From Candidatus Zixiibacteriota bacterium (GTDB taxonomy: Bacteria > RBG-13-66-14 > B26-G2 > WVWN01), in assembly GCA_030613505.1 (NCBI GenBank), contig JAUWLW010000043.1:1-22016 (forward strand): DNA of 22,016 nt, written 5' to 3'. This document shows positions 5,258-21,227 of the stretch, one piece after another. How positions within the stretch are numbered: the stretch's first letter is position 1; each line of letters starts with the position of its first letter. The notes below the pieces were generated by a model that saw only the letters and a list, made by a program, of their open reading frames with translations, was not told the DNA's origin and searched no databases. The position numbers were made by a program, and so were the translations under genes.

Positions 5258-8200
5258 CTATACCGCGCCCCCCGCCGATAACGCGTCGCGAGCCAACCGC
5301 GGCGCCTCGCCGAGCAATTCCTCGCCGCGCGAAAGCAGCGCCGCCGCCGGCCCGGGCTCCACCACGCGTTCGCCCGCGGGCGCCCGCGGGAAGACAAGGT
5401 ACGCCCGGGCGACCGCGCAAGCCGTCACTCGCGCCAGCGCCGCCGCATATACCGCCATCTGGTCGCCGTACTTCCCTTCCGCCCGCTCCGCCCCCCCGGC
5501 CTCGTCCGTCTTGTAGTCCACGACAACGAGCCCTTCGGCCGTCTCGTATACCAAATCCGCCTTCCCGGTAACGACGGCGTCTCCCACCGTCACGGCGAAA
5601 GGCATCTCCCGGTAATACGCCGGCGCGGCCGCGGCTTCCCGGACCGGCGCCGTCGCCAGGCAGTCCCGCGCCCAGGCCGCCACGGCGGCCGCGTCTTCGT
5701 CGCCTAAACCCTCGCGAGCGCAAGCGGCCGCGGCGATTTCCTCCAACGCGGCGCCCGTCGCCAGGTCCACTTCCTCCATGACGGCGTGCAGCGCGGAGCC
5801 CAGCTTGAGGGCGTCGGGCCGCGACGCCGGCGCCTCCTCGAACTCCGCCGGCACCTCCTCTTCGACCCGCGCCAACGCGGTGGCCGCGATTACCGCTACG
5901 GGTACGCTGGCCCGGTCGAGCTCTTCCGCCAGGCTTTTCTTCCACCCTTCGCAACCCGGGCCGAGTTCCGGCGCCGCCGGTTCCTCGGGACGGGGCCGAC
6001 GGACCCGACGCCGTTCCTCGGCGGGGTCGACGCGCACCACCCCCACCGACCGCGCCGCCTCGGCCTCGGCCAACGTCTCGGCGAGCGAGTTTTCGCCCGC
6101 TTCCGCCATACGGGGCAGGACGAGGAGGTCCCGCGCCCGCGTCGCGGCGACGTAGTCCAGCCGCCGCTCCTCCGCCTCGCCGAAGCGGCCTTCGCGAGCC
6201 GCCGCGTCCTCGTACCCGGGCGTAAGCAGCTGCGTCCCTTCGCTCCGGCTGCCGGCGCGCACGTGCAGCAGGCCGGTCCGGCGGTCGACGAACGCCGTCT
6301 CGCCCCGGCCCTTCCCGGCGTCCCTCGCCCAATCGACGAAGACGACGGCGTTGAACTCCAGCCCCTTGGCGCCGTGTACGGTCATGATACGCACGAAATC
6401 GTCGCCGGGCTCGAGCGCGGGCGACTCGTGCTCCGCCTCCTCGCGCCCCGCCATCTCGCCCAGCCAGCGCGCGAACGCCCGCAGGCCGACGCCGCCGGTC
6501 TGGACGAACTTCCGGGCCGACGCCAAAACCTTGCGGACGTTGGCCACGGCGCGCGGGCCGTCGCCCCAAAGCGCCGCCTTGGTGAGCAGGCCGGTATATT
6601 CCGCCAGCCGCGCCAGCGTCGCCGCCGGCGACCTTTCGGCGCGGCCTTCGTGCAACCTCTTCAACAAACCGAGGGCGTCGGCGAAGCGGCGCGGCCCCGC
6701 CCGCGGGGGGTCTACGCGGTAGTCGAAAACGCCGCCCGCCAACTTGAAGCGAAGCAGCTCGTCGGCGTTGAAAGAGAACAGCGGCGACGTGAGCGTAGCG
6801 ACCAGCGCCGGCTCGTCGGCGGGGTTGTCGAGCGCCCGCGCCGCGGCGGCCATGGCCTTGACCTCCGGCCGCACGTAGAACGTCCGGCCGCCCAGCGTAT
6901 AGAAAGGAACGCCCCACGCCTCCAACGCCTCCTCCCACGTAGGTACGTTTGTACGCGCCCGGAAAAGTAGCGCCACGTCGCGGTACGCTAACGGGCGGCG
7001 CACGCCGGCCTCTTTATCGTAAACCTCGAACTCGCCGGCGTCGACGGCGCGCCTTACAAACGCCGCCACGGCCTCGGCCGCCTCCTCCTCCGCCTCGAAG
7101 GCGCCGTCGGGGCCCTCCAAAAACCTGGCCGCGGGCGCGTCGCGCTGGCGCTCGCGGGTTAAGGGAGAGGGCGCGAGCGCACCGTAGGCCGGCTGATACG
7201 GCGGGTCCCCCTCGCCGAAGACGCCGCCGAAAGCGTCGTTCACGAAGGATACCAGCTCGGGCGCCGCGCGGAAGTTGTCGGTCAGCCGCAGGACCTCCCC
7301 GCCCTCCCGCGTCACGACGTCGCACGCGGCCTCGTATATCTCCACGTCGGCGCGCCGGAACCGGGAGATGGATTGCTTGGGGTCGCCGACGACGAAGAGC
7401 TTTCCGGGCACCAGCGCCACGTCGCGCCAGTCCGTCGCCACGGCGCCCTCCTCCGCCAGGAAGAATATCAACTCCACCTGGAGCGGGTCCGTATCCTGGA
7501 ACTCGTCCACCAGGACGTGGCGGTAGCGCCGTTGGAAGTACTCGCGTGCGCCGTTCTCCTTACGGCGCAGCAGCCGCACCGCCCGGAGCAGCAAGTCGTG
7601 GAAGTCGAGGCCGCCGAGCTCTTCTTTGCGCCCGTCGAAGGCCCGGGCCGCGCCGGCAAGCCACGAGACGAGCGGCGGCAGCATCGCCCGCTGGCGGCCG
7701 TCGCACACCCGCGCCAGCGCCTCCGCCACCGGCCGCAACCACTTTTCGTTTAATTCGTCCTTCGTCTCCCCCGGGCGCCAATTCTTTTTGGCCCCGCCGG
7801 CCTTTATCGAAAGCGAGCACGCCCGCTCGAGGTCGCCGGCCTCGAGCGCTTGCGCCAGGTCGTCGAGAGAAGCGAACGTGCGGTAACAGGCGTCGCCGCG
7901 GTCGAGGCACCGGTCGCGCACCTCGTCGAAACGCGCCCGCGCGGCGCGCACCGCCTCGCGCACCTCGCCCGGGTCCACGGCGGGGATATCGTACCCTTCC
8001 ACGTCGACGACGTCGCGCTCCGCCGACGCCGCCGCTACAACGCGCTCCAGAAGCTCGAGCCGGGGCGAGCCGAAGTGGGCCCACGCCGACGCCCAGGGCG
8101 CCGCGCCTTCCGCCCGTTCCGCCTCCGCCTGCAGCCACTCCTCCCATACTTGCTCGAAAAGCAGCGTCGCCCCCACCGCGTCGAGAACTTGAAAAGCCGG

Positions 8201-8560
8201 ATCCACCGCGGCCTCCACCGGCAGCTCCCGCAACAACGAGGCCGCGAAGGAGTGAATGGTAGAAATCTGCGCCTGGTCGAAACGCTCCAGCGCGTGTTCC
8301 GCCTGCTCGTCGCCGGGGTGGGCCGCGGCCCAATCCTCGAGCGCCGCCCGGAGCCGTGCCGATAGCTCCGCCGCGGCCTTCTCGGTGAACGTTATCGCGA
8401 CGAGACGGGACGGCTCGTAACCGGGAGTCAGCAGCGCCGCGAGCGCCCGGTCGCACAGCAGCCGCGTCTTGCCGGTGCCGGCGCTGGCCTCGACGAAGAA
8501 GGTCCGGCCCAAATCCACGACCGCGTCCCGCGCCTCGCTGTCCGACAGTTCCTGCGTCAT
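5258..8560 (-). CDS. addA: AddA-type helicase-nuclease (UvrD/Rep superfamily)
   Basis: 1100 residues with the complete SF1A motif set: Walker A ASAGTGKT (25-32), AITFTEKAA (55-63), TIHSFAASLLR (101-111), Walker B VDEFQDTD (351-358), VGDPKQSISRFRRAD (391-405), MTVHGAKGLEF (726-736) and YVAATRARD (803-811). The C-terminal ~190 residues are a RecB-family PD-(D/E)XK nuclease with His925 (GSALHAVME), Asp1002 (GKADLVYE) and Asp1015-x-Lys1017 (VVDYKTD), then a GDQMAVYAAAL helix. With AddB it would unwind and trim double-strand ends so that RecA can load. It starts 9 nt after addB in the same direction. Length and motif order fit AddA (about 1150-1240 in other bacteria). Confidence 0.9.
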   Translation of the reverse strand: MTQELSDSEARDAVVDLGRTFFVEASAGTGKTRLLCDRALAALLTPGYEPSRLVAITFTEKAAAELSARLRAALEDWAAAHPGDEQAEHALERFDQAQISTIHSFAASLLRELPVEAAVDPAFQVLDAVGATLLFEQVWEEWLQAEAERAEGAAPWASAWAHFGSPRLELLERVVAAASAERDVVDVEGYDIPAVDPGEVREAVRAARARFDEVRDRCLDRGDACYRTFASLDDLAQALEAGDLERACSLSIKAGGAKKNWRPGETKDELNEKWLRPVAEALARVCDGRQRAMLPPLVSWLAGAARAFDGRKEELGGLDFHDLLLRAVRLLRRKENGAREYFQRRYRHVLVDEFQDTDPLQVELIFFLAEEGAVATDWRDVALVPGKLFVVGDPKQSISRFRRADVEIYEAACDVVTREGGEVLRLTDNFRAAPELVSFVNDAFGGVFGEGDPPYQPAYGALAPSPLTRERQRDAPAARFLEGPDGAFEAEEEAAEAVAAFVRRAVDAGEFEVYDKEAGVRRPLAYRDVALLFRARTNVPTWEEALEAWGVPFYTLGGRTFYVRPEVKAMAAAARALDNPADEPALVATLTSPLFSFNADELLRFKLAGGVFDYRVDPPRAGPRRFADALGLLKRLHEGRAERSPAATLARLAEYTGLLTKAALWGDGPRAVANVRKVLASARKFVQTGGVGLRAFARWLGEMAGREEAEHESPALEPGDDFVRIMTVHGAKGLEFNAVVFVDWARDAGKGRGETAFVDRRTGLLHVRAGSRSEGTQLLTPGYEDAAAREGRFGEAEERRLDYVAATRARDLLVLPRMAEAGENSLAETLAEAEAARSVGVVRVDPAEERRRVRRPRPEEPAAPELGPGCEGWKKSLAEELDRASVPVAVIAATALARVEEEVPAEFEEAPASRPDALKLGSALHAVMEEVDLATGAALEEIAAAACAREGLGDEDAAAVAAWARDCLATAPVREAAAAPAYYREMPFAVTVGDAVVTGKADLVYETAEGLVVVDYKTDEAGGAERAEGKYGDQMAVYAAALARVTACAVARAYLVFPRAPAGERVVEPGPAAALLSRGEELLGEAPRLARDALSAGGAV

Positions 8561-8569
8561 AGGGTACGC

Positions 8570-11500
8570 CTATTTAATTTCCCTCAACTCGGCGAGCCGC
8601 GCCGCCCGGGGCGAAGTCCACTTCTCGACACTCAGGTAGCCCGGGCCCGCGTCGCACACGGTTCGGAATTCGCAATAACGACACGCGCCGCCGGCACGGC
8701 TCGAGCCGTCCCGCCCAGCGACGAATACGCCGTCGTACGCCAAACCCAGCAAACCCGCTACCAGGCGGCGGACCGTCGCCGCGTCCGGGGGCCGTTTTTC
8801 CGAAACGACGAATTTATACTTCTTACCGTCCTCAAGGGGAAAGCAGTACCCGGCCGCCGACGACGCCGTGTCGGCGCCGAAGAGCTTCTCGTAGGCCATC
8901 AAGTACAGCGGCGGCTGCAGCTGGCGGCCGCCGTCGACGCTCTCCACGAAGCGGCCGCGCCGGCCCGTCTTGTAATCCAACACCCGGACGCCGTCGCCGC
9001 GGAGGTCGACGCGGTCGATGCGGCCGTGGATCTCCGCCGCCGCCGGCCCGGCTTCGCCCTCGGCGGCTTCCTCCCGCAAGTCCAGCAGGAGAGGGCTTTC
9101 GGTGGACGCCGCGTCGTCGCTCGCCGCGGGGCGCCGGCCGAAACGCAATTCGAAGTGGGCCGGCTCCCAGCCGTCCCCGGCCGCCGCGTCCTCGCGTACG
9201 TAGGCGGCGAGCTTGCGCGAGAGCAGACGGCGCTCCATCTCAAAGACGAAAGGTAGCGGCAACTCCCCCTCCGCTTCCAGCGCCGCCAACGCCCCTTCCG
9301 TCAAGCGCGCCACCTCGGCCGAAAGTTCGGCGCCGGCGAGCGCGGATGGGACGCCCTCGGCGTAAAGCTCGCGCAGGACGTCGTGGACCACTTTTCCTCG
9401 AGCGGCGGGCGACAGCGCGAGCGCCTCCTCCGGTTCCTCCCACGCCCTCAGCCCCAGGATTCTCCCGAAGAAATATTTCCGGGGGCAGGCGGCCAGCGCC
9501 TCCAAATCGGACGCGCCCACCGGCACCGCGCCCCGGCCGTAGCGCTTCGCCAGGAAGCCCTTTCCCTCTTCGGAGGATATCAAGCCGTCGAAGGGCGTCA
9601 GGTCCGGCGCCCGGGGGGAGGCGGCCGCGTCCCGGGCCGCGGCCCACCGGTCGCTCGCGGCCGCCAGGTACGCCGCCACCGGCGCCTCGCCCAGCTCGCG
9701 GGCGCGGCCCGCCCAATACTCGCCCTCGTCGACGGCGTCTTCCGCCGAGGGCGCCTCCGACGCCCCCACCCGCCGGAACCACGGGTACGCCGACGCCGCG
9801 CGGTCGAAGCCCTCGGCGCCGAACGTCGCCCCCGCCATCGCCCCGGCGAACTTCAAAACGTAATGGGAGGGAAAGCGCTCCCGCCCCTCGCCGTCCAGGC
9901 GGTGGTACGAGACGCGGAGGAATTCCCCGGCGGCGCCGAGCGCGAGGTGGAATATCAACGGCTCCTCCGCCAACCGCTCGCCGCGGAGGTTGAAGCGCCA
10001 CCGCCCCCGGGCGAGCTCGTTGAACGCCGCCCGTTCGGCGTCCAACATCACCGGGTCCTGCGACGGGCGGAAGGGGTACGCCCCCTCGACCGCGGCCGGT
10101 ACGAAGACGGCCCGGAAAGCGAGGCCGCGCGCCTGGTCCGTTTTTATTAAATTGATGCCGTCGCGCTCGAAGCGACCCGCGGGCACGGTCGCTTCGGCCA
10201 GGCGGTGCGCGAAGGTCTCGACGAAGGTTTTCAGCGGGACCGGCGCCGCAACGAGGTCGTCGTATGCGGCCATGCCGCGGGCGAGGCCGAGGGCCTGTTC
10301 ACGTTCTCGGGACGGCTCAAAATACTCGGTTACGACATCGGCGAGGCCGTCCGCGAAATCGCGCCACGAGCCCTCGCCCGGGAAACGTTCCAAATCCGTG
10401 AAAAGTTTTTCCGTAAAGCACTTCAAAGCCTTAACATCTGCGGCGTCGTGCCTTCTCTTCTCCGCCGGCATTCGTTCGCACGCCGCGGCGTAGCGCGCCA
10501 GCCGCTCGGCCCACTCCGCGCGGCCGTAGACGACGCCGGCGGCCGCGGATATGTCGTCCCACAGCGCCGGCTCGAGCTGAGCGCCCTCGCCCGCCGCTTC
10601 CGACTTGAGGGGCGCCGTCTCCACGAAATCGACCACCTCGCGTCGGCCGAAGGGGTGGGCGGACGTTTGCGCGTGCCACGCCAGCTCGAGCAGCCGCCGC
10701 GCTCCCTCGCCGGCACGCGTGACAGTCAGGGGCCGGCCGCCGTAAACGTAATACTTGCCCCGGCCGTCGTCGCCGGCGAGGACGCGGTCGAAGACTTCCG
10801 TCAATACGGCCAGCGTCTCGTCGCCGCGGTAGAGGACCGCCATCTCCGCCAGCCGCACGCCGTGCTCGCGGCTGAGCCGCAGCGCCTCACGCGCGACCTC
10901 GCGCGCCTCCGCCTCCGCGTCCGGGGCCGAGATTATTTTCACGCCCTCCGCCGAGGCCGGCCCGTCGCGGCCGCCGAACCAGTATCGGGCCGCCTCGACG
11001 CCGGCCGCCGCCTCGCCCGCCGCGGCGACGTCCGCCCGGAACCCCAAACCGTCGAGCCAGTCCCGGGTGGCGCGCGCGAAGCGGAACTCGCGCCCCTCGC
11101 CGTACGGTACGTACAGCGTCAAACGAACGTCCCGACTCAAGGCTTCGAGCAAGCGACGTTGCAGCTCGTTAAAATCGTAAAAGCCGAATACGAACAGCTC
11201 CTCGGCGCCGAAGGTTCCGGCGAAGGCCGCGGCTCGAGCCGCCGCCGCCGAAAAGACGTCGTACTCGTCCCGGTAAACCCGCCGCCCTTTCGCCAGCTCT
11301 CCCCGGTACCGGTCGAAGAGTTCGCCGAACAATATTAGCCTGTCGCCGAGGTTGAGGTCGGCGTGCCAACGGCCCAGGCCGGCCTGGCGGGCGTCTTCGG
11401 CCGCGGCCGCGAGCGTCTCCGCGAACCCGGCCTTGTCCTTCACCGGCCCGAAGAACGACTCGACGGGCAGGCCGGCCGCGAGAGAGCCGAACACTACTTG

Positions 11501-11770
11501 CTCGCCGCCGGCGGGCACGTCGTCCCCCGGGCCGGCCAGCCGCCGGGCGAGGTCGACGAACGTCAGAAAGCGGACGTTGGCGTGGCCGCCCGCCTCGCGA
11601 GCCAGGCGACGGGAGAGCTGGAGGGCTACGAGGTTGGAGCGCACCAGGACGACGACCGGCGCCAGCGGCCGCCCCTCCCGGGCGACACGGACGTCGCCGA
11701 GCAACCGAGCCGACAAGGCCGCCTCGGCCGTCGAAAGGTGGAGCGCGTGCTTTGAAGCTTCGGCCGACAT
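8570..11770 (-). CDS. addB: AddB-type nuclease/inactive helicase with Fe-S cluster
   Basis: 1066 residues. The C-terminal nuclease shows His796 (GKVVHDVLRELY), Asp919 (HGRIDRVD), Asp932-x-Lys934 (LDYKTG) and QLQPPLYLMAY. Four cysteines in the AddB arrangement bracket it: Cys762 (ACPRKYFFGRILGL), then Cys1030, Cys1033 and Cys1039 (CRYCEFRTVC), as expected for a 4Fe-4S cluster. The N-terminal half has the UvrD-like layout (VVVLVRSNLVALQLSRRL, later AVLYRGDE) but I find no GxxGxGKT loop, so ATP binding is probably lost, as in proteobacterial AddB. The ATG at 11770 lacks a clear ribosome site. It is divergent from the DUF3108 gene across 136 nt, in which I found no convincing addB promoter. Confidence 0.88.
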   Translation of the reverse strand: MSAEASKHALHLSTAEAALSARLLGDVRVAREGRPLAPVVVLVRSNLVALQLSRRLAREAGGHANVRFLTFVDLARRLAGPGDDVPAGGEQVVFGSLAAGLPVESFFGPVKDKAGFAETLAAAAEDARQAGLGRWHADLNLGDRLILFGELFDRYRGELAKGRRVYRDEYDVFSAAAARAAAFAGTFGAEELFVFGFYDFNELQRRLLEALSRDVRLTLYVPYGEGREFRFARATRDWLDGLGFRADVAAAGEAAAGVEAARYWFGGRDGPASAEGVKIISAPDAEAEAREVAREALRLSREHGVRLAEMAVLYRGDETLAVLTEVFDRVLAGDDGRGKYYVYGGRPLTVTRAGEGARRLLELAWHAQTSAHPFGRREVVDFVETAPLKSEAAGEGAQLEPALWDDISAAAGVVYGRAEWAERLARYAAACERMPAEKRRHDAADVKALKCFTEKLFTDLERFPGEGSWRDFADGLADVVTEYFEPSREREQALGLARGMAAYDDLVAAPVPLKTFVETFAHRLAEATVPAGRFERDGINLIKTDQARGLAFRAVFVPAAVEGAYPFRPSQDPVMLDAERAAFNELARGRWRFNLRGERLAEEPLIFHLALGAAGEFLRVSYHRLDGEGRERFPSHYVLKFAGAMAGATFGAEGFDRAASAYPWFRRVGASEAPSAEDAVDEGEYWAGRARELGEAPVAAYLAAASDRWAAARDAAASPRAPDLTPFDGLISSEEGKGFLAKRYGRGAVPVGASDLEALAACPRKYFFGRILGLRAWEEPEEALALSPAARGKVVHDVLRELYAEGVPSALAGAELSAEVARLTEGALAALEAEGELPLPFVFEMERRLLSRKLAAYVREDAAAGDGWEPAHFELRFGRRPAASDDAASTESPLLLDLREEAAEGEAGPAAAEIHGRIDRVDLRGDGVRVLDYKTGRRGRFVESVDGGRQLQPPLYLMAYEKLFGADTASSAAGYCFPLEDGKKYKFVVSEKRPPDAATVRRLVAGLLGLAYDGVFVAGRDGSSRAGGACRYCEFRTVCDAGPGYLSVEKWTSPRAARLAELREIK

Positions 11771-17833: not shown

Positions 17834-18187
17834 ATGACGGGCAAACGGGTATTAGCGTGCACGCTCTTCGGCATCGTCGCCGGCATCCTGTGCTGGCTGG
17901 GCTCGCAATACATGGGCAAGACGCCGATAGTTTTCACCACCGGCATCATCCTGGGCATAATATTGAACCGGGCGTTTATCGGCTTCACGCTCGGCATCTC
18001 GAAGTGGCGGACGAACTGGGCCTTTCACGGCGTCGTCATCGGCCTGGTGGGAACGCTGCCGCTGTCGGTCTACGCCCTCGACGGCCCCAACGGCCTGAGC
18101 GGTTTCCTGCTGCTCGAGCTCGCCGGCGGCGTGTGGGGCTTCCTCATCGAGTTGGGCGCGCTGGCGGTGGGGGCGAAGAAGAAGTAA
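17834..18187 (+). CDS. Small four-helix membrane protein of unknown function
   Basis: 117 residues, very hydrophobic, with four likely membrane helices at about 5-24, 31-54, 62-82 and 89-113, and a KKK tail. The central stretch NRAFIGFTLGISKWRTNWAFHGVVIG (45-70) has two short charged turns between helices and looks like the conserved core; I have no named family for it. A strong AGGAGGG (17820-17826) precedes the ATG by 7 nt. It has a terminator on each side, so it is probably a single-gene unit with its own promoter, although I see no clear promoter in the 118 nt before it. Confidence 0.75.
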   Translation: MTGKRVLACTLFGIVAGILCWLGSQYMGKTPIVFTTGIILGIILNRAFIGFTLGISKWRTNWAFHGVVIGLVGTLPLSVYALDGPNGLSGFLLLELAGGVWGFLIELGALAVGAKKK

Positions 18188-18210: not shown

Positions 18211-18247
18211 AAAGGCAGGTGGGAACACCTGCCTTTAACTTTTTAAT
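18211..18247. terminator. Strong bidirectional terminator
   Basis: Perfect 11-bp stem AAAGGCAGGTG/CACCTGCCTTT with a GGAA loop. On the plus strand AACTTTTT follows; on the minus strand the stem runs into TTTTTCC. It separates the membrane-protein gene from the convergent AT-rich cassette and marks the left edge of the composition change. Confidence 0.9.
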
Positions 18248-18258
18248 AAAAATAAAAA

Positions 18259-19389
18259 TTACTTATTCTTCAAATATAGTACCGCCTTATTTAGCATATT
18301 TTCTCCACCCGCTTCCTTCTTTAGAATTTCCCGCATAGGTTTAGTTAAATAAGTTGCCGTTTTAATTTTCGAATTATTCAGAACCCCGTAACGTTCGAGC
18401 GTGTCTTTTAAAATGTTTAATTCGTCTTCGTCTAAACTAATGCCGAAACGGGGAGAAGGACCAAGCGTTACGTACGGAACCCCGCGCCGGTAAGTATTAA
18501 CCACCTCGTAACCCTCGAGGTAGTTTAGTACCCTTTCTATATCCGGAGGCCACGGCCCATCAACTTGACGTAGATATATAGAACCGGTTATTCCACGTTT
18601 TAACCGTTCGTAAGCAGTAAAATCAGCCAGGTATAGAAGTTTAGTAAGCTTAAATTTAGAAACCGTCCGACACCTTGATACTAAAAAATTTATAGCTTGC
18701 ACTAGGCCAAATAGCTTTTCATCTGGCCGGAAATCGGAAACCTTGGCAGGGCGAGTTTTACGAGCTATAAGACCACGTAACGGACGGACCACTTTAGCTA
18801 ACTTATAAAAATCGTTTCTTTGAGCGGCTAAAGAACGGTGCACTACCGCTCTTTGGCTTGGGTGATATAAGGGTACTATCTTACGTCCAAACCAAGGTAC
18901 CAACGTTCCGACCTTCGATTTTAAAGAGTAATTATGGGGTTGGATAAAAGACAAACTTCTAAGCGCGACGGCGCCAAGTGTGACAATGACGTCAGGTTCT
19001 ATTACTTCGATAGTCATACTTAGGAACTCAGAACAATTGCTGATTTCTTCATTAGTTGGTGGAGCGTTCCTTCCCTTTTTATCGCGGGGATTGCAAAGTA
19101 CCGCGTTCGTAATAAAAACCTTATCCCGAAACCAGCCAACATTTTTTAATAGTGTTTCAAAATTATCTCCAGCCTTATCGCCGCATAAAGGCACCCCCGT
19201 TTTATCGGCCCCGAGACGGCCAGGCGCTTCAGCTACAAACAAAACTTTAGAATCGATATTCCCGTTAGCCAACGTAAGGACTTTTTTCCTTCTAGCCATC
19301 CTCGGGCAAATATCGCAATAGCTAACAGCGTCGGTTAACGCGGCGAACTTTTTTTCTTTTTCGAAACGTTGTAGCGTAATTTGTACCAT
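18259..19389 (-). CDS. Uracil-DNA glycosylase-like domain fused to a Panacea (DUF4065, SocA-like) domain
   Basis: 376 residues. Residues 1-205 follow family-4 uracil-DNA glycosylases: Fe-S cysteines Cys25, Cys28, Cys99 and Cys119 (YCDICPRM, NAVLCNPRD, ISNCSEF), motif A VAEAPGRLGADKTG (52-65), VTLGAVALRSL (136-146) and motif B YHPSQRAVVH (175-184). After a basic linker, residues ~225-340 fit the Panacea domain: FKLTKLLYLADFTAYERLKRG, then GSIYLRQVDGPWPPDIERVL and DEDELNILKDTLERYG. Panacea domains occur in SocA-like antitoxins and phage-related proteins. ATG 19389 is preferred over TTG 19395 because AGGGG (19400-19396) lies six bases upstream, overlapping the stop of the radical SAM gene. Both domain calls are from motifs; activity is unproven. 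Confidence 0.75.
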   Translation of the reverse strand: MVQITLQRFEKEKKFAALTDAVSYCDICPRMARRKKVLTLANGNIDSKVLFVAEAPGRLGADKTGVPLCGDKAGDNFETLLKNVGWFRDKVFITNAVLCNPRDKKGRNAPPTNEEISNCSEFLSMTIEVIEPDVIVTLGAVALRSLSFIQPHNYSLKSKVGTLVPWFGRKIVPLYHPSQRAVVHRSLAAQRNDFYKLAKVVRPLRGLIARKTRPAKVSDFRPDEKLFGLVQAINFLVSRCRTVSKFKLTKLLYLADFTAYERLKRGITGSIYLRQVDGPWPPDIERVLNYLEGYEVVNTYRRGVPYVTLGPSPRFGISLDEDELNILKDTLERYGVLNNSKIKTATYLTKPMREILKKEAGGENMLNKAVLYLKNK

Positions 19390-19398
19390 TAACAACCC

Positions 19399-20427
19399 CT
19401 AATTAATAGATAAGCACATTGGGTCAGGTGCTTTTTTTAATGAACCACTCGCGATGACCTTTTGGGCAAGACAACCGGAAAGGCAACGTTTTAGTAAATA
19501 ACAATCGCAACAAGGTTTTTCGAAAGGGGTACTAAGATATTCTCTAATTTCTTTAAAATAAAACGATTTATCCCAACAATCTATTAAAGAATATTTATCA
19601 AGCCGCGAATACTCATCGGTCCCTACCATATCCAAAGCTTCTAACTGCTTAAACGCATCGCAAGGATAAATACTAAATTCAGGGCCTACAATAAGCCTAT
19701 CGATACCCGCCAAACATTTAGGGCTTTCATTGACCAACAGGAAATTATATGGAGAACCAGCCCTTATATCAAATGATTTTCTACCGTTTTCAATTAACCT
19801 TTTTAATTCGATATTTTGCTCTCTTGTTAACCCCATAGTAGAACTTATAGCTCCGCGGCCTTGGGGTACGAATCTCAATATACTAACGCGTTTCGCTTCG
19901 ACCCCCGATGCCAAGCTGACGACGCCCGGAAGATCTTCGTAGTTAATACTTAATGGCACAAAATGGAATTCGAATTCAATACTGTTATTAAAAGCTTCTT
20001 CGGTAGCTTTTAACGTTTTAGAAAAACTTCCATAACGCCGCGTTACCCGTTCGTGTTTTTCTGCGTCGCCGCCAAAGATACTGAATGCTATCTGGGATAC
20101 CCCAACATCTTTCAACTTCTTAAACACTTCTGCCTGATTTGCAAAGTTCCCCGACGTGTAAACCAACGTCCTAATGCCGGCCTTCGTGCAAGCTAAAATA
20201 GCTTTTTCAATTCCCTTCCAAATTAAAGGCTCCCCGCCCGAAAACACAATTTCCTCAACCCCGTAGTCCATAACTTGGTTTAAAAGCCCCATCGCGGCGG
20301 CGAAAGACATTTCCCGATCGCAACCAGGTGTCGCTTCGCTAGAACAATGCAAGCAAACCAAAGGGCAACGGTGGGTTACTTCAATTTTAATTTCCCTTAA
20401 AATGTAATTATTAGATTCCCGTACCAT
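19399..20427 (-). CDS. Radical SAM enzyme with SPASM-type C-terminal cysteines
   Basis: 342 residues. The radical SAM cluster motif is Cys21, Cys25 and Cys28 (HRCPLVCLHC), followed by the SAM-binding SGGEPL at 63-68 and a typical barrel (YTSGNF, IAFSIFGG). The C-terminal third has a SPASM-like cysteine set: KCLAG (238), IYPCDAF (256), KPCCDCYLLKRCLSGC (306, 307, 309, 315, 319) and PMC (338), enough for one or two more Fe-S clusters. Such enzymes modify peptides, nucleotides or cofactors. No precursor-peptide gene is visible. The start ATG overlaps the stop of the TS-like gene by one base (TAATG), suggesting translational coupling. AT-rich codon use matches its two neighbours. Confidence 0.85.
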   Translation of the reverse strand: MVRESNNYILREIKIEVTHRCPLVCLHCSSEATPGCDREMSFAAAMGLLNQVMDYGVEEIVFSGGEPLIWKGIEKAILACTKAGIRTLVYTSGNFANQAEVFKKLKDVGVSQIAFSIFGGDAEKHERVTRRYGSFSKTLKATEEAFNNSIEFEFHFVPLSINYEDLPGVVSLASGVEAKRVSILRFVPQGRGAISSTMGLTREQNIELKRLIENGRKSFDIRAGSPYNFLLVNESPKCLAGIDRLIVGPEFSIYPCDAFKQLEALDMVGTDEYSRLDKYSLIDCWDKSFYFKEIREYLSTPFEKPCCDCYLLKRCLSGCLAQKVIASGSLKKAPDPMCLSIN

Positions 20428-21158
20428 TAATTCCCAAGTATACCTTTGATTAAGCTTACGAAACCGGGACCCTTTTGTTCCAAATAAGCATGACTAGATA
20501 CGCAAGTTAAGGGCCCGATACGAGAGCTCGTTTCTCTACATATAAACTCTAATAAACGACCGAGCCCTAGGAAGTTCCCGTACGCCTTTCCTGAGTAATC
20601 TTGGTTCCTATAAACAGCTAGCATCCCGATTATATTCGGTTCACCGCGTTCTAACTGGAGGGTTAAATAATTCAAGCAAGGCCCTCCCCGAGGCCGTGTA
20701 CATTCTTGGGCTGGCTTTTGGATATTTATGGTATAGGCAGCTTTTAATAGTCTTGCCCTCCCGTTAATAGCTTCAATAATATTACCCAGTTGGTTAACGG
20801 GTTCCCCATCGACTTCGTAATAAGTAATCCTCCGGAAATAAGTACCCCAACTAGTTTTTATCCTTTCGTACAAACCGCCGGGTTTATTATAGTCCCTATA
20901 TAATCGTACCGCGTCTCTACCGGAAGCGAAGCCCATCGGGAAAATCGTATAAGCCACGTGTTTCGGTAAAAGCAATCCTTCTTGGCGGCAGAACTCGTCG
21001 TATCTGGAACGTATTTCTCCGTCTTCGGTGATAGGCTCCCTAATATAAACAAATAAGTTCCGGGCTTCCCCAGAACTTATAATCAACCTTTCACAAGCCT
21101 CCACCCACGCCCGAGAAATTGAACTCGCGTCAACTACGTATGGAGGGTTAATTCCCAT
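20427..21158 (-). CDS. Thymidylate-synthase-fold protein, divergent
   Basis: 243 residues, shorter than ThyA (264 in E. coli). The second half lines up with thymidylate synthase: catalytic Cys161 in GGPCLNYLTLQL, Arg184 and Asp187 in VYRNQDYSG, Asn195 in AYGNFLGLGRLLEFI, and His223-x-Tyr225 in SSHAYLE. The spacings match E. coli Cys146, Arg166, Asp169, Asn177, His207 and Tyr209 closely. SWGTYFRRITYY with VNQLGNIIEAI (103-130) resembles the YGxQWR…DQ region. The first ~80 residues are unlike ThyA and I cannot find the catalytic Glu (E58) segment. It probably acts on dUMP or a related pyrimidine (methyl or hydroxymethyl transfer), not necessarily to make dTMP. It starts at ATG 21158 with GAGGA just upstream and is the first gene of the cassette. 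Confidence 0.75.
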   Translation of the reverse strand: MGINPPYVVDASSISRAWVEACERLIISSGEARNLFVYIREPITEDGEIRSRYDEFCRQEGLLLPKHVAYTIFPMGFASGRDAVRLYRDYNKPGGLYERIKTSWGTYFRRITYYEVDGEPVNQLGNIIEAINGRARLLKAAYTINIQKPAQECTRPRGGPCLNYLTLQLERGEPNIIGMLAVYRNQDYSGKAYGNFLGLGRLLEFICRETSSRIGPLTCVSSHAYLEQKGPGFVSLIKGILGN

Positions 21159-21198: not shown

Positions 21199-21227
21199 AA
21201 TTTACGTTCACCGTATTAATAAGTCAA
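21199..21227 (-). promoter_or_regulatory. Promoter of the three-gene AT-rich cassette
   Basis: On the minus strand TTGACT (21227-21222), exactly 17 nt, TAAATT (21204-21199). The start would be near 21192, leaving a leader of about 34 nt to the ATG at 21158. The element has the same form as the promoters at 3889 and 11851. It lies in the 89-nt gap after the EF-G gene, where no terminator hairpin is evident. Confidence 0.6.

What the first reader, a model, noticed from the sequence alone, without database searches (positions are those of the whole stretch)
18259..21158. Possible undescribed three-gene system: TS-fold enzyme, radical SAM/SPASM enzyme, UDG-Panacea fusion
Seen: three co-directional genes with a one-base overlap (TAATG) and then a 9-nt gap, one promoter, one terminator, and base composition clearly unlike both flanks. 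Known: TS homologues and radical SAM enzymes occur in phage pathways that hypermodify thymidine, UDG-fold proteins recognise altered pyrimidines in DNA, and Panacea domains belong to toxin-antitoxin or phage-related proteins. Inferred: the first two enzymes make or alter a pyrimidine, and the third senses or excises a base, with the Panacea part controlling it. I do not know a described system with this set.
Basis: partly seen in the sequence, partly recalled or inferred. Interest (0 to 1): 0.88.

Follow-up and report, generated by a model that had tools for sequence, protein, structure and literature searches.

The report
Mobile three-gene nucleotide-modifying defence module
A foreign three-gene block, recurring in other bacteria beside anti-phage genes, encodes two enzymes that probably build an altered DNA building block and a third that probably cuts altered bases out of DNA, making it a likely new type of bacterial immunity.

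Summary
A low-GC operon (GC3 38-43% against 86-89% nearby) on the minus strand, 18259-21158, encodes a thymidylate-synthase-fold (TS) enzyme, a radical SAM/SPASM enzyme and a UDG-Panacea fusion. It is an insertion of about 3.0 kb: three congeners keep the same neighbours with an empty site.

The trio recurs, same order and same fusion (44-52% identity), in Moorella mulderi and Syntrophomonas, beside OLD-like ATPase, SIR2, AIPR and restriction-helicase genes. A fourth copy has a UDG without Panacea; a fifth is broken, beside transposases. So it is a real, mobile, defence-island module, and Panacea is optional.

It is an outlying variant of a wider family: HTH-ImmA/IrrE-TS-(HMUDK or UDG)-MazG_C loci on plasmids, prophages and chromosomes. 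In 17 TS loci the TS partner is either a UDG (9) or the 5-hmdU DNA-kinase domain HMUDK_hel (8), never both. The same radical SAM family sits beside HMUDK in two further loci.

Best reading: TS (then rSAM) makes a C5-modified deoxyuridine-type nucleotide; the UDG acts on that base in DNA. Defence context is well supported; chemistry, and whether Panacea is a brake, are inferred. TS and 5-hmdU-kinase domains were recently validated in phage defence; this set was not found described.

The parts
20427..21158 (-). TS-superfamily enzyme, 243 aa; C161, R184, D187, N195, H223, Y225 align with E. coli ThyA C146, R166, D169, N177, H207, Y209
   Evidence: ORF; hhalign to ThyA (E 3e-10); AF2 model pLDDT 87; PDB matches Z 18.4 (AfhB), 17.4 (MilA), about 15 (TS)
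19399..20427 (-). radical SAM/SPASM enzyme, 342 aa; CxxxCxxC at C21/C25/C28, SPASM Cys C238, C256, C306, C309, C315, C319, C338, all invariant in four relatives
18259..19395 (-). UDG-Panacea fusion, 378 aa from TTG 19395 or 376 aa from ATG 19389
18832..19266 (-). UDG domain (PF03167 match); family-4-like with four Cys, EAPG motif 1, N94, HP motif 2 retained (A7 numbering)
18349..18648 (-). SocA_Panacea domain (PF13274 match); signature GPV motif present as GPW
   Evidence: motif in PMC8832971
18240..21245 (.). approximate extent of the inserted low-GC segment; empty site in three congeners
18211..18236 (.). bidirectional terminator hairpin, counterpart present in congeners lacking the trio
21199..21227 (-). 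weak sigma-70-like promoter candidate TTGACT-17-TAAATT, 9/12
   Evidence: number of promoter-like hits not above shuffles

Best explanation
The trio is a mobile anti-phage module built on a modified deoxypyrimidine. Shown: a conserved, horizontally acquired three-gene unit found in defence islands and related to TS/HMUDK/UDG/MazG_C loci. Inferred: (1) the TS-like enzyme modifies a dUMP-type nucleotide at C5; (2) the radical SAM enzyme elaborates or activates that group; (3) the nucleotide, or the base after incorporation, ends up in DNA, above all in rapidly replicating phage DNA; (4) the UDG domain excises that base, leaving abasic sites that stop replication and packaging; (5) where present, the Panacea domain restrains the glycosylase or the synthase pair until infection. 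In sister loci HMUDK, whose phage namesakes phosphorylate 5-hmdU in DNA, takes the place of the UDG. My estimates: mobile defence-type module 0.85; TS works on a deoxyuridylate-type nucleotide 0.7; UDG acts on the resulting base in DNA 0.5; Panacea as brake 0.35.
For: Same order and fusion in Moorella mulderi and Syntrophomonas; a UDG-only trio in G340 and a broken copy beside transposases in a near relative of M. mulderi. Empty site in three congeners, GC3 halved. Neighbours: OLD/AriA-like ATPase (PADLOC E 5e-45), SIR2-TPR and HNH (L015); AIPR, ResIII helicase with REase domain, MNT-type nucleotidyltransferase (L016). TS fold with ThyA-equivalent catalytic Cys, phosphate-binding Arg, base-reading Asn and Asp169 equivalent. 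In L013 TS is followed by a Thymidylate_kin-HMUDK_hel fusion and a radical SAM 46% identical to the window's, implying a dNMP product that is phosphorylated. UDG or HMUDK, never both, in 17 TS loci. UDG keeps four Cys, EAPG, base-reading Asn and HP. UDG-superfamily glycosylases defend against phages with modified bases (PMC11078745, PMC13160076); TS and 5-hmdU-kinase domains validated in defence (PMC13092281).
Against: No activity is known for any member. The TS lacks an obvious equivalent of ThyA Glu58 (Thr-Ile-Phe-Pro region instead), so it may not do folate-dependent C1 transfer; the best structural match is a flavin-dependent dCMP hydroxylase, so substrate base and cofactor are open. The UDG pocket differs from family 4 (F54 to Leu, E47 to Ala, one-residue insertion; with residue numbers from own knowledge). 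The UDG-Panacea model failed (pLDDT 36). SPASM enzymes more often modify peptides. The 17 loci are not phylogenetically independent. No defence gene lies inside this 22-kb window itself.
Confidence: 0.42

Rival explanations
1. Brig-like restriction glycosylase: the UDG excises a hypermodified thymine made by the phage, and TS and rSAM act on the phage's own modified nucleotide pool (sensing, trapping or converting it) rather than making a host product.
For: Brig1 and Brig3 are UDG-superfamily enzymes that excise phage modified bases; phages make 5-hmdU-derived bases; the UDG pocket differs from canonical family 4 at base-facing positions.
Against: TS looks catalytically complete rather than a dead sensor; TS is also paired with TMP kinase/HMUDK, which fits synthesis; Brig1 and Brig3 need no TS or rSAM.
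Confidence: 0.2
2. DarTG-like toxin-antitoxin logic: TS and rSAM make a toxic nucleotide or DNA base, and UDG-Panacea is a dual antitoxin that removes the base (type IV) and binds the toxin (type II).
For: Panacea domains neutralise toxins by binding, with a conserved GPV-type motif (GPW here); the Panacea paper cites DarG as a dual antitoxin; fusion conserved in three distant copies.
Against: In G340 the UDG has no Panacea; sister loci replace the UDG by a kinase-type domain, which is not an obvious antidote; excising a widely incorporated base would itself be harmful.
Confidence: 0.2
3. Host DNA self-marking: the trio modifies host thymines as an epigenetic or self/non-self mark, with the UDG editing it.
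For: TS plus radical SAM resemble phage thymidine-hypermodification pathways (own knowledge; background).
Against: No cognate restriction enzyme or transferase in the conserved unit; sparse distribution.
Confidence: 0.07
4. Ordinary metabolism or repair: a vertically inherited nucleotide-salvage or base-excision-repair operon, or a peptide-maturation pair with an unrelated UDG.
For: UDG family 4 and TS have housekeeping members; the rSAM matches PqqE/NirJ-like SPASM profiles.
Against: Empty site in congeners, foreign composition, absence from 13 other genomes of the phylum, a broken copy, defence-island neighbours, no precursor peptide gene noticed in the unit.
Confidence: 0.06

Closest known systems
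TS, dNMP kinase and 5-hmdU-kinase defence genes (DefensePredictor, PMC13092281), and predicted MazG/MazG-C/UDG/NMAD/HATPase systems in its Fig. 6F
   Same: TS-superfamily enzyme in phage defence; UDG, MazG_C and HATPase appear in the predicted sets, and all occur in relatives of this trio
   Different: The text held mentions no radical SAM and no Panacea; sequence kinship of their TS with this one could not be tested
HTH-ImmA/IrrE-(C1)-TS-HMUDK or UDG-MazG_C loci on plasmids and prophages (L003-L010, L012-L014, L049-L051)
   Same: Homologous TS (26-33% identity); UDG or HMUDK beside it; mobile contexts
   Different: Trio lacks HTH, ImmA/IrrE, ACP, C1 peptidase and MazG_C; has rSAM; its UDG is a different, 4Fe-4S family-4-like lineage
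Phage thymidine hypermodification (5-hmdU made, incorporated, phosphorylated by 5-hmdU DNA kinase, then elaborated)
   Same: TS-superfamily first step, HMUDK; radical SAM steps known from the literature (own knowledge: Lee et al., Pathways of thymidine hypermodification)
   Different: Host-encoded, no transferase (AADT/aGPT-Pplase), a glycosylase takes the kinase's place
Brig1/Brig3 defence glycosylases
   Same: UDG-superfamily enzyme in a defence island
   Different: Other partners or none; act on modified cytosines; no TS or rSAM
PanAT (Panacea) toxin-antitoxin systems
   Same: Panacea domain with GP motif in a small operon
   Different: Panacea is fused to a UDG, with two metabolic-type enzymes, and can be absent

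Membership tests
Thymidylate synthase (TIGR03283 / ThyA) | Score above the curated family cut-off | tested here: not met
   34.5 bits against 174.55; no Pfam match
Thymidylate synthase superfamily fold | TS fold with active-site Cys and nucleotide-binding Arg/Asn | tested here: met
   AF2 pLDDT 87; AfhB Z 18.4, MilA 17.4, TS 15.2 over about 195 residues; residue mapping by hhalign
Folate-dependent ThyA chemistry | Glu58 equivalent and C-terminal closing segment | tested here: inconclusive
   hhalign places no Glu at the Glu58 region and the protein is shorter at the C-terminus; low identity makes the local register unsure
Radical SAM/SPASM | CxxxCxxC plus SPASM cysteines | tested here: met
   PF04055 E 3e-20; C21/25/28 and C238, 256, 306, 309, 315, 319, 338 invariant in four proteins
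UDG family 4 (TIGR00758) | Curated cut-off 125.3 bits | tested here: not met
   93.9 bits; Moorella 97.3, G340 93.7
UDG family 4 (TIGR00758) | Four 4Fe-4S cysteines, EAPG motif 1, HP motif 2 | tested here: met
   C24, C27, C98, C118, E53, N94, H175-P176 invariant in A7
UdgX | TIGR03914 cut-off 189.95 bits | tested here: not met
   70.9 bits
Panacea (SocA_Panacea, PF13274) | Curated cut-off and GP motif | tested here: met
   31.8 bits against 25.7; GPW present
PanAT toxin-antitoxin | Panacea protein neutralises a toxic partner | not testable with these tools
   needs a toxicity assay
TS/HMUDK/MazG_C nucleotide-modification loci | HMUDK_hel or MazG_C beside TS | tested here: not met
   absent in all trio loci; UDG in HMUDK's place
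Anti-phage defence system | Protects against phage | not testable with these tools
   only context evidence; the trio itself has no PADLOC system match (only generic viperin hits for the rSAM)

The most novel reading that the evidence does not exclude
A previously undescribed immune chemistry: the host itself makes a new C5-modified deoxyuridine nucleotide with a TS-fold and a radical SAM enzyme, lets it enter replicating phage DNA, and turns it into abasic lesions with its own dedicated glycosylase, whose Panacea domain is the safety catch.
Probability: 0.28. Interest if true: 0.92.

Novelty: new variant of a known kind. Interest (0 to 1): 0.74.

Why it matters
Host-encoded TS and 5-hmdU-kinase domains have only just been tied to phage defence, and I know of no established mechanism. 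The trio is a minimal three-gene form of that network, present in a cultivable genus (Moorella), with a glycosylase where relatives have a DNA-base kinase domain. That exchange makes a sharp prediction, that the pathway's product is a base in DNA, which nucleoside mass spectrometry and a glycosylase assay can test directly. If true, bacteria poison phage DNA with a home-made base.

Tried and rejected
Single-protein pattern scans with the TS or UDG-Panacea of the window found nothing in genome or viral contigs, and A5/A7 found nothing in viral contigs: the trio is not seen there at that sensitivity. Multi-sequence A1 gave no usable genome pattern. UDG-Panacea structure failed, so no fold evidence for that protein beyond sequence. 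PDB sequence search with TS profile A8 gave only chance hits. No E. coli homologue of the TS-HMUDK locus by distant blastn, so the DefensePredictor E. coli system was not compared. Iyer 2013, Burroughs 2015 and Lee 2021 are not held. RiPP reading of the rSAM rejected: no precursor gene seen, partner TS instead. Ordinary ThyA reading rejected on score. Phage-moron reading of the window copy rejected: no phage genes around it. A tree of rSAMs groups trio plus HMUDK-linked ones at 92/94, below the strict threshold; taken as supportive only.

Full report
OBSERVATION. The finding is real and correctly read. On the minus strand lie 21158..20427 (243 aa), 20427..19399 (342 aa) and 19395/19389..18259 (378/376 aa). 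The first junction is TAATG; from the rSAM stop to the ATG of gene 3 there are 9 nt. Domain calls hold: a remote thymidylate synthase match (TIGR03283, 34.5 bits) backed by a confident model, radical SAM plus SPASM, and UDG plus SocA_Panacea. GC is 41-45% and GC3 38-43%, against GC3 86-89% in neighbouring genes. The promoter candidate is weak.

INSERTION. The block is absent from the 13 other genomes held of this small phylum (TS search). In three congeners the order pyrF - hypothetical - 117-aa protein - terminator - EF-G is kept with about 100 bp where the window has about 3.1 kb. No direct or inverted repeat above 7 nt marks the ends and no integrase is present, so the route of entry is unknown. 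The terminator at 18211-18236 has counterparts in congeners.

RECURRENCE. A search with the two-sequence rSAM profile A4 found Moorella mulderi DSM 14980 (L015) and Syntrophomonas sp. UBA5432 (L016), each with TS, rSAM and UDG-Panacea in the same order. Identities to the window: TS 44/47%, rSAM 52/48%, UDG-Panacea 50/48%. A TS profile (A5) over 398 genomes of Moorella's phylum added G366 (L026), with 99% identical DNA to M. mulderi across the TS-rSAM stretch but with the rSAM cut short beside transposase genes and the UDG gone, and G340 (L027), with TS, rSAM and a 213-aa UDG without Panacea followed by a HATPase. Thus the unit is conserved, mobile, subject to loss, and Panacea is optional.

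DEFENCE CONTEXT. L015: OLD/AriA-like AAA_15 ATPase (PADLOC PD-T4-4_A E 5e-45), SIR2-TPR protein, HNH protein and transposases. L016: AIPR (PF10592 E 6e-25) directly upstream, ResIII helicase with an N-terminal REase domain, and an MNT-type nucleotidyltransferase. The window itself carries only ordinary genes near the trio.

WIDER FAMILY. The TS has relatives on 24 plasmids, in viral contigs and in 3 of 377 Pseudomonadota genomes. Those examined sit in HTH-ImmA/IrrE-(C1 peptidase)-TS loci, mostly with MazG_C and either HMUDK_hel or a UDG. Over 17 TS loci having either, 9 have a UDG and 8 have HMUDK, none both. The UDGs are of two kinds, the family-4-like one of the trio and a divergent one in the C1 loci, so the exchange seems to have happened at least twice; the loci are related, so I give no P value. 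In L013 the TS is followed by a Thymidylate_kin-HMUDK_hel fusion and by an rSAM 46% identical to the window's. In a Parabacteroides plasmid an rSAM 31% identical lies in TIR(ThsB)-Nmad2-HMUDK-rSAM. PqqE-type rSAMs are 22-27% identical.

ENZYMES. TS: hhalign places C161, R184, D187, N195, H223 and Y225 on ThyA C146, R166, D169, N177, H207 and Y209. By ThyA precedent (own knowledge) N177 favours a uracil-type base. The Glu58 region is not conserved. Structure search ranks the flavin-dependent dCMP hydroxylase AfhB and the CMP hydroxymethylase MilA above TS, so the reaction may be hydroxylation, hydroxymethylation or methylation. UDG: four Fe-S cysteines, EAPG, base-reading Asn and HP are kept; Phe of the pocket is Leu and motif 1 has one extra residue. 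It scores below the family-4 cut-off. Panacea: the GPV signature described in PMC8832971 is GPW here.

MECHANISM. A TMP-kinase-like partner argues for a modified dNMP; HMUDK, which in phages phosphorylates 5-hmdU in DNA (PMC6449724), argues for a base in DNA; a UDG in HMUDK's place argues for excision of that base. I therefore favour synthesis of a C5-modified deoxyuridine nucleotide by TS and rSAM, its use in DNA during phage replication, and excision by the UDG. Panacea as brake is a guess by analogy. Rivals are a Brig-like glycosylase acting on phage bases and a DarTG-like arrangement.

LITERATURE AND NOVELTY. DefensePredictor (PMC13092281) lists a TS and a 5-hydroxymethyluracil kinase among domains newly validated in defence and predicts MazG/MazG-C/UDG/NMAD/HATPase systems, citing Burroughs et al. 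2015. No held paper was found that describes TS, rSAM and UDG-Panacea together, but key papers of the field are not held. I file it as a new variant of the TS-centred nucleotide-modification conflict systems, with function untested.

Noticed in passing
L056 2870-7512: Parabacteroides distasonis plasmid: ThsB-type TIR protein, Nmad2, HMUDK_hel, radical SAM and a 521-aa protein with an HD-like motif in one operon near an integrase; looks like a TIR-armed relative of nucleotide-modification systems.
   Followed up: partly
L013 4475-9567: Viral contig with ACP-HTH-ImmA/IrrE-TS-(TMP kinase-HMUDK fusion)-rSAM beside phage tail-type genes.
   Followed up: partly
L005, L008, L013, L014, L049: A small acyl-carrier-like protein precedes HTH and ImmA/IrrE in several TS loci; its role with a nucleotide-modifying set is unexplained.
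   Followed up: no
L026 9311-10998: Broken copy of the trio beside transposases in a near relative of Moorella mulderi: TS intact, rSAM truncated, UDG lost.
   Followed up: yes
L027 5396-7135: HATPase gene directly behind the Panacea-less UDG; HATPase also appears in predicted defence sets of PMC13092281.
   Followed up: partly
17834-18187: 117-aa membrane-type protein has one copy here but two or three tandem copies in three congeners.
   Followed up: partly
L004 1735-2895: Shedu nuclease gene close to the TS-UDG-MazG_C set on a Bradyrhizobium plasmid.
   Followed up: no
5258-11770: AddA/AddB-like pair (UvrD helicase with PDDEXK, and a PDDEXK protein) on the minus strand; probably a housekeeping recombination nuclease.
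   Followed up: partly
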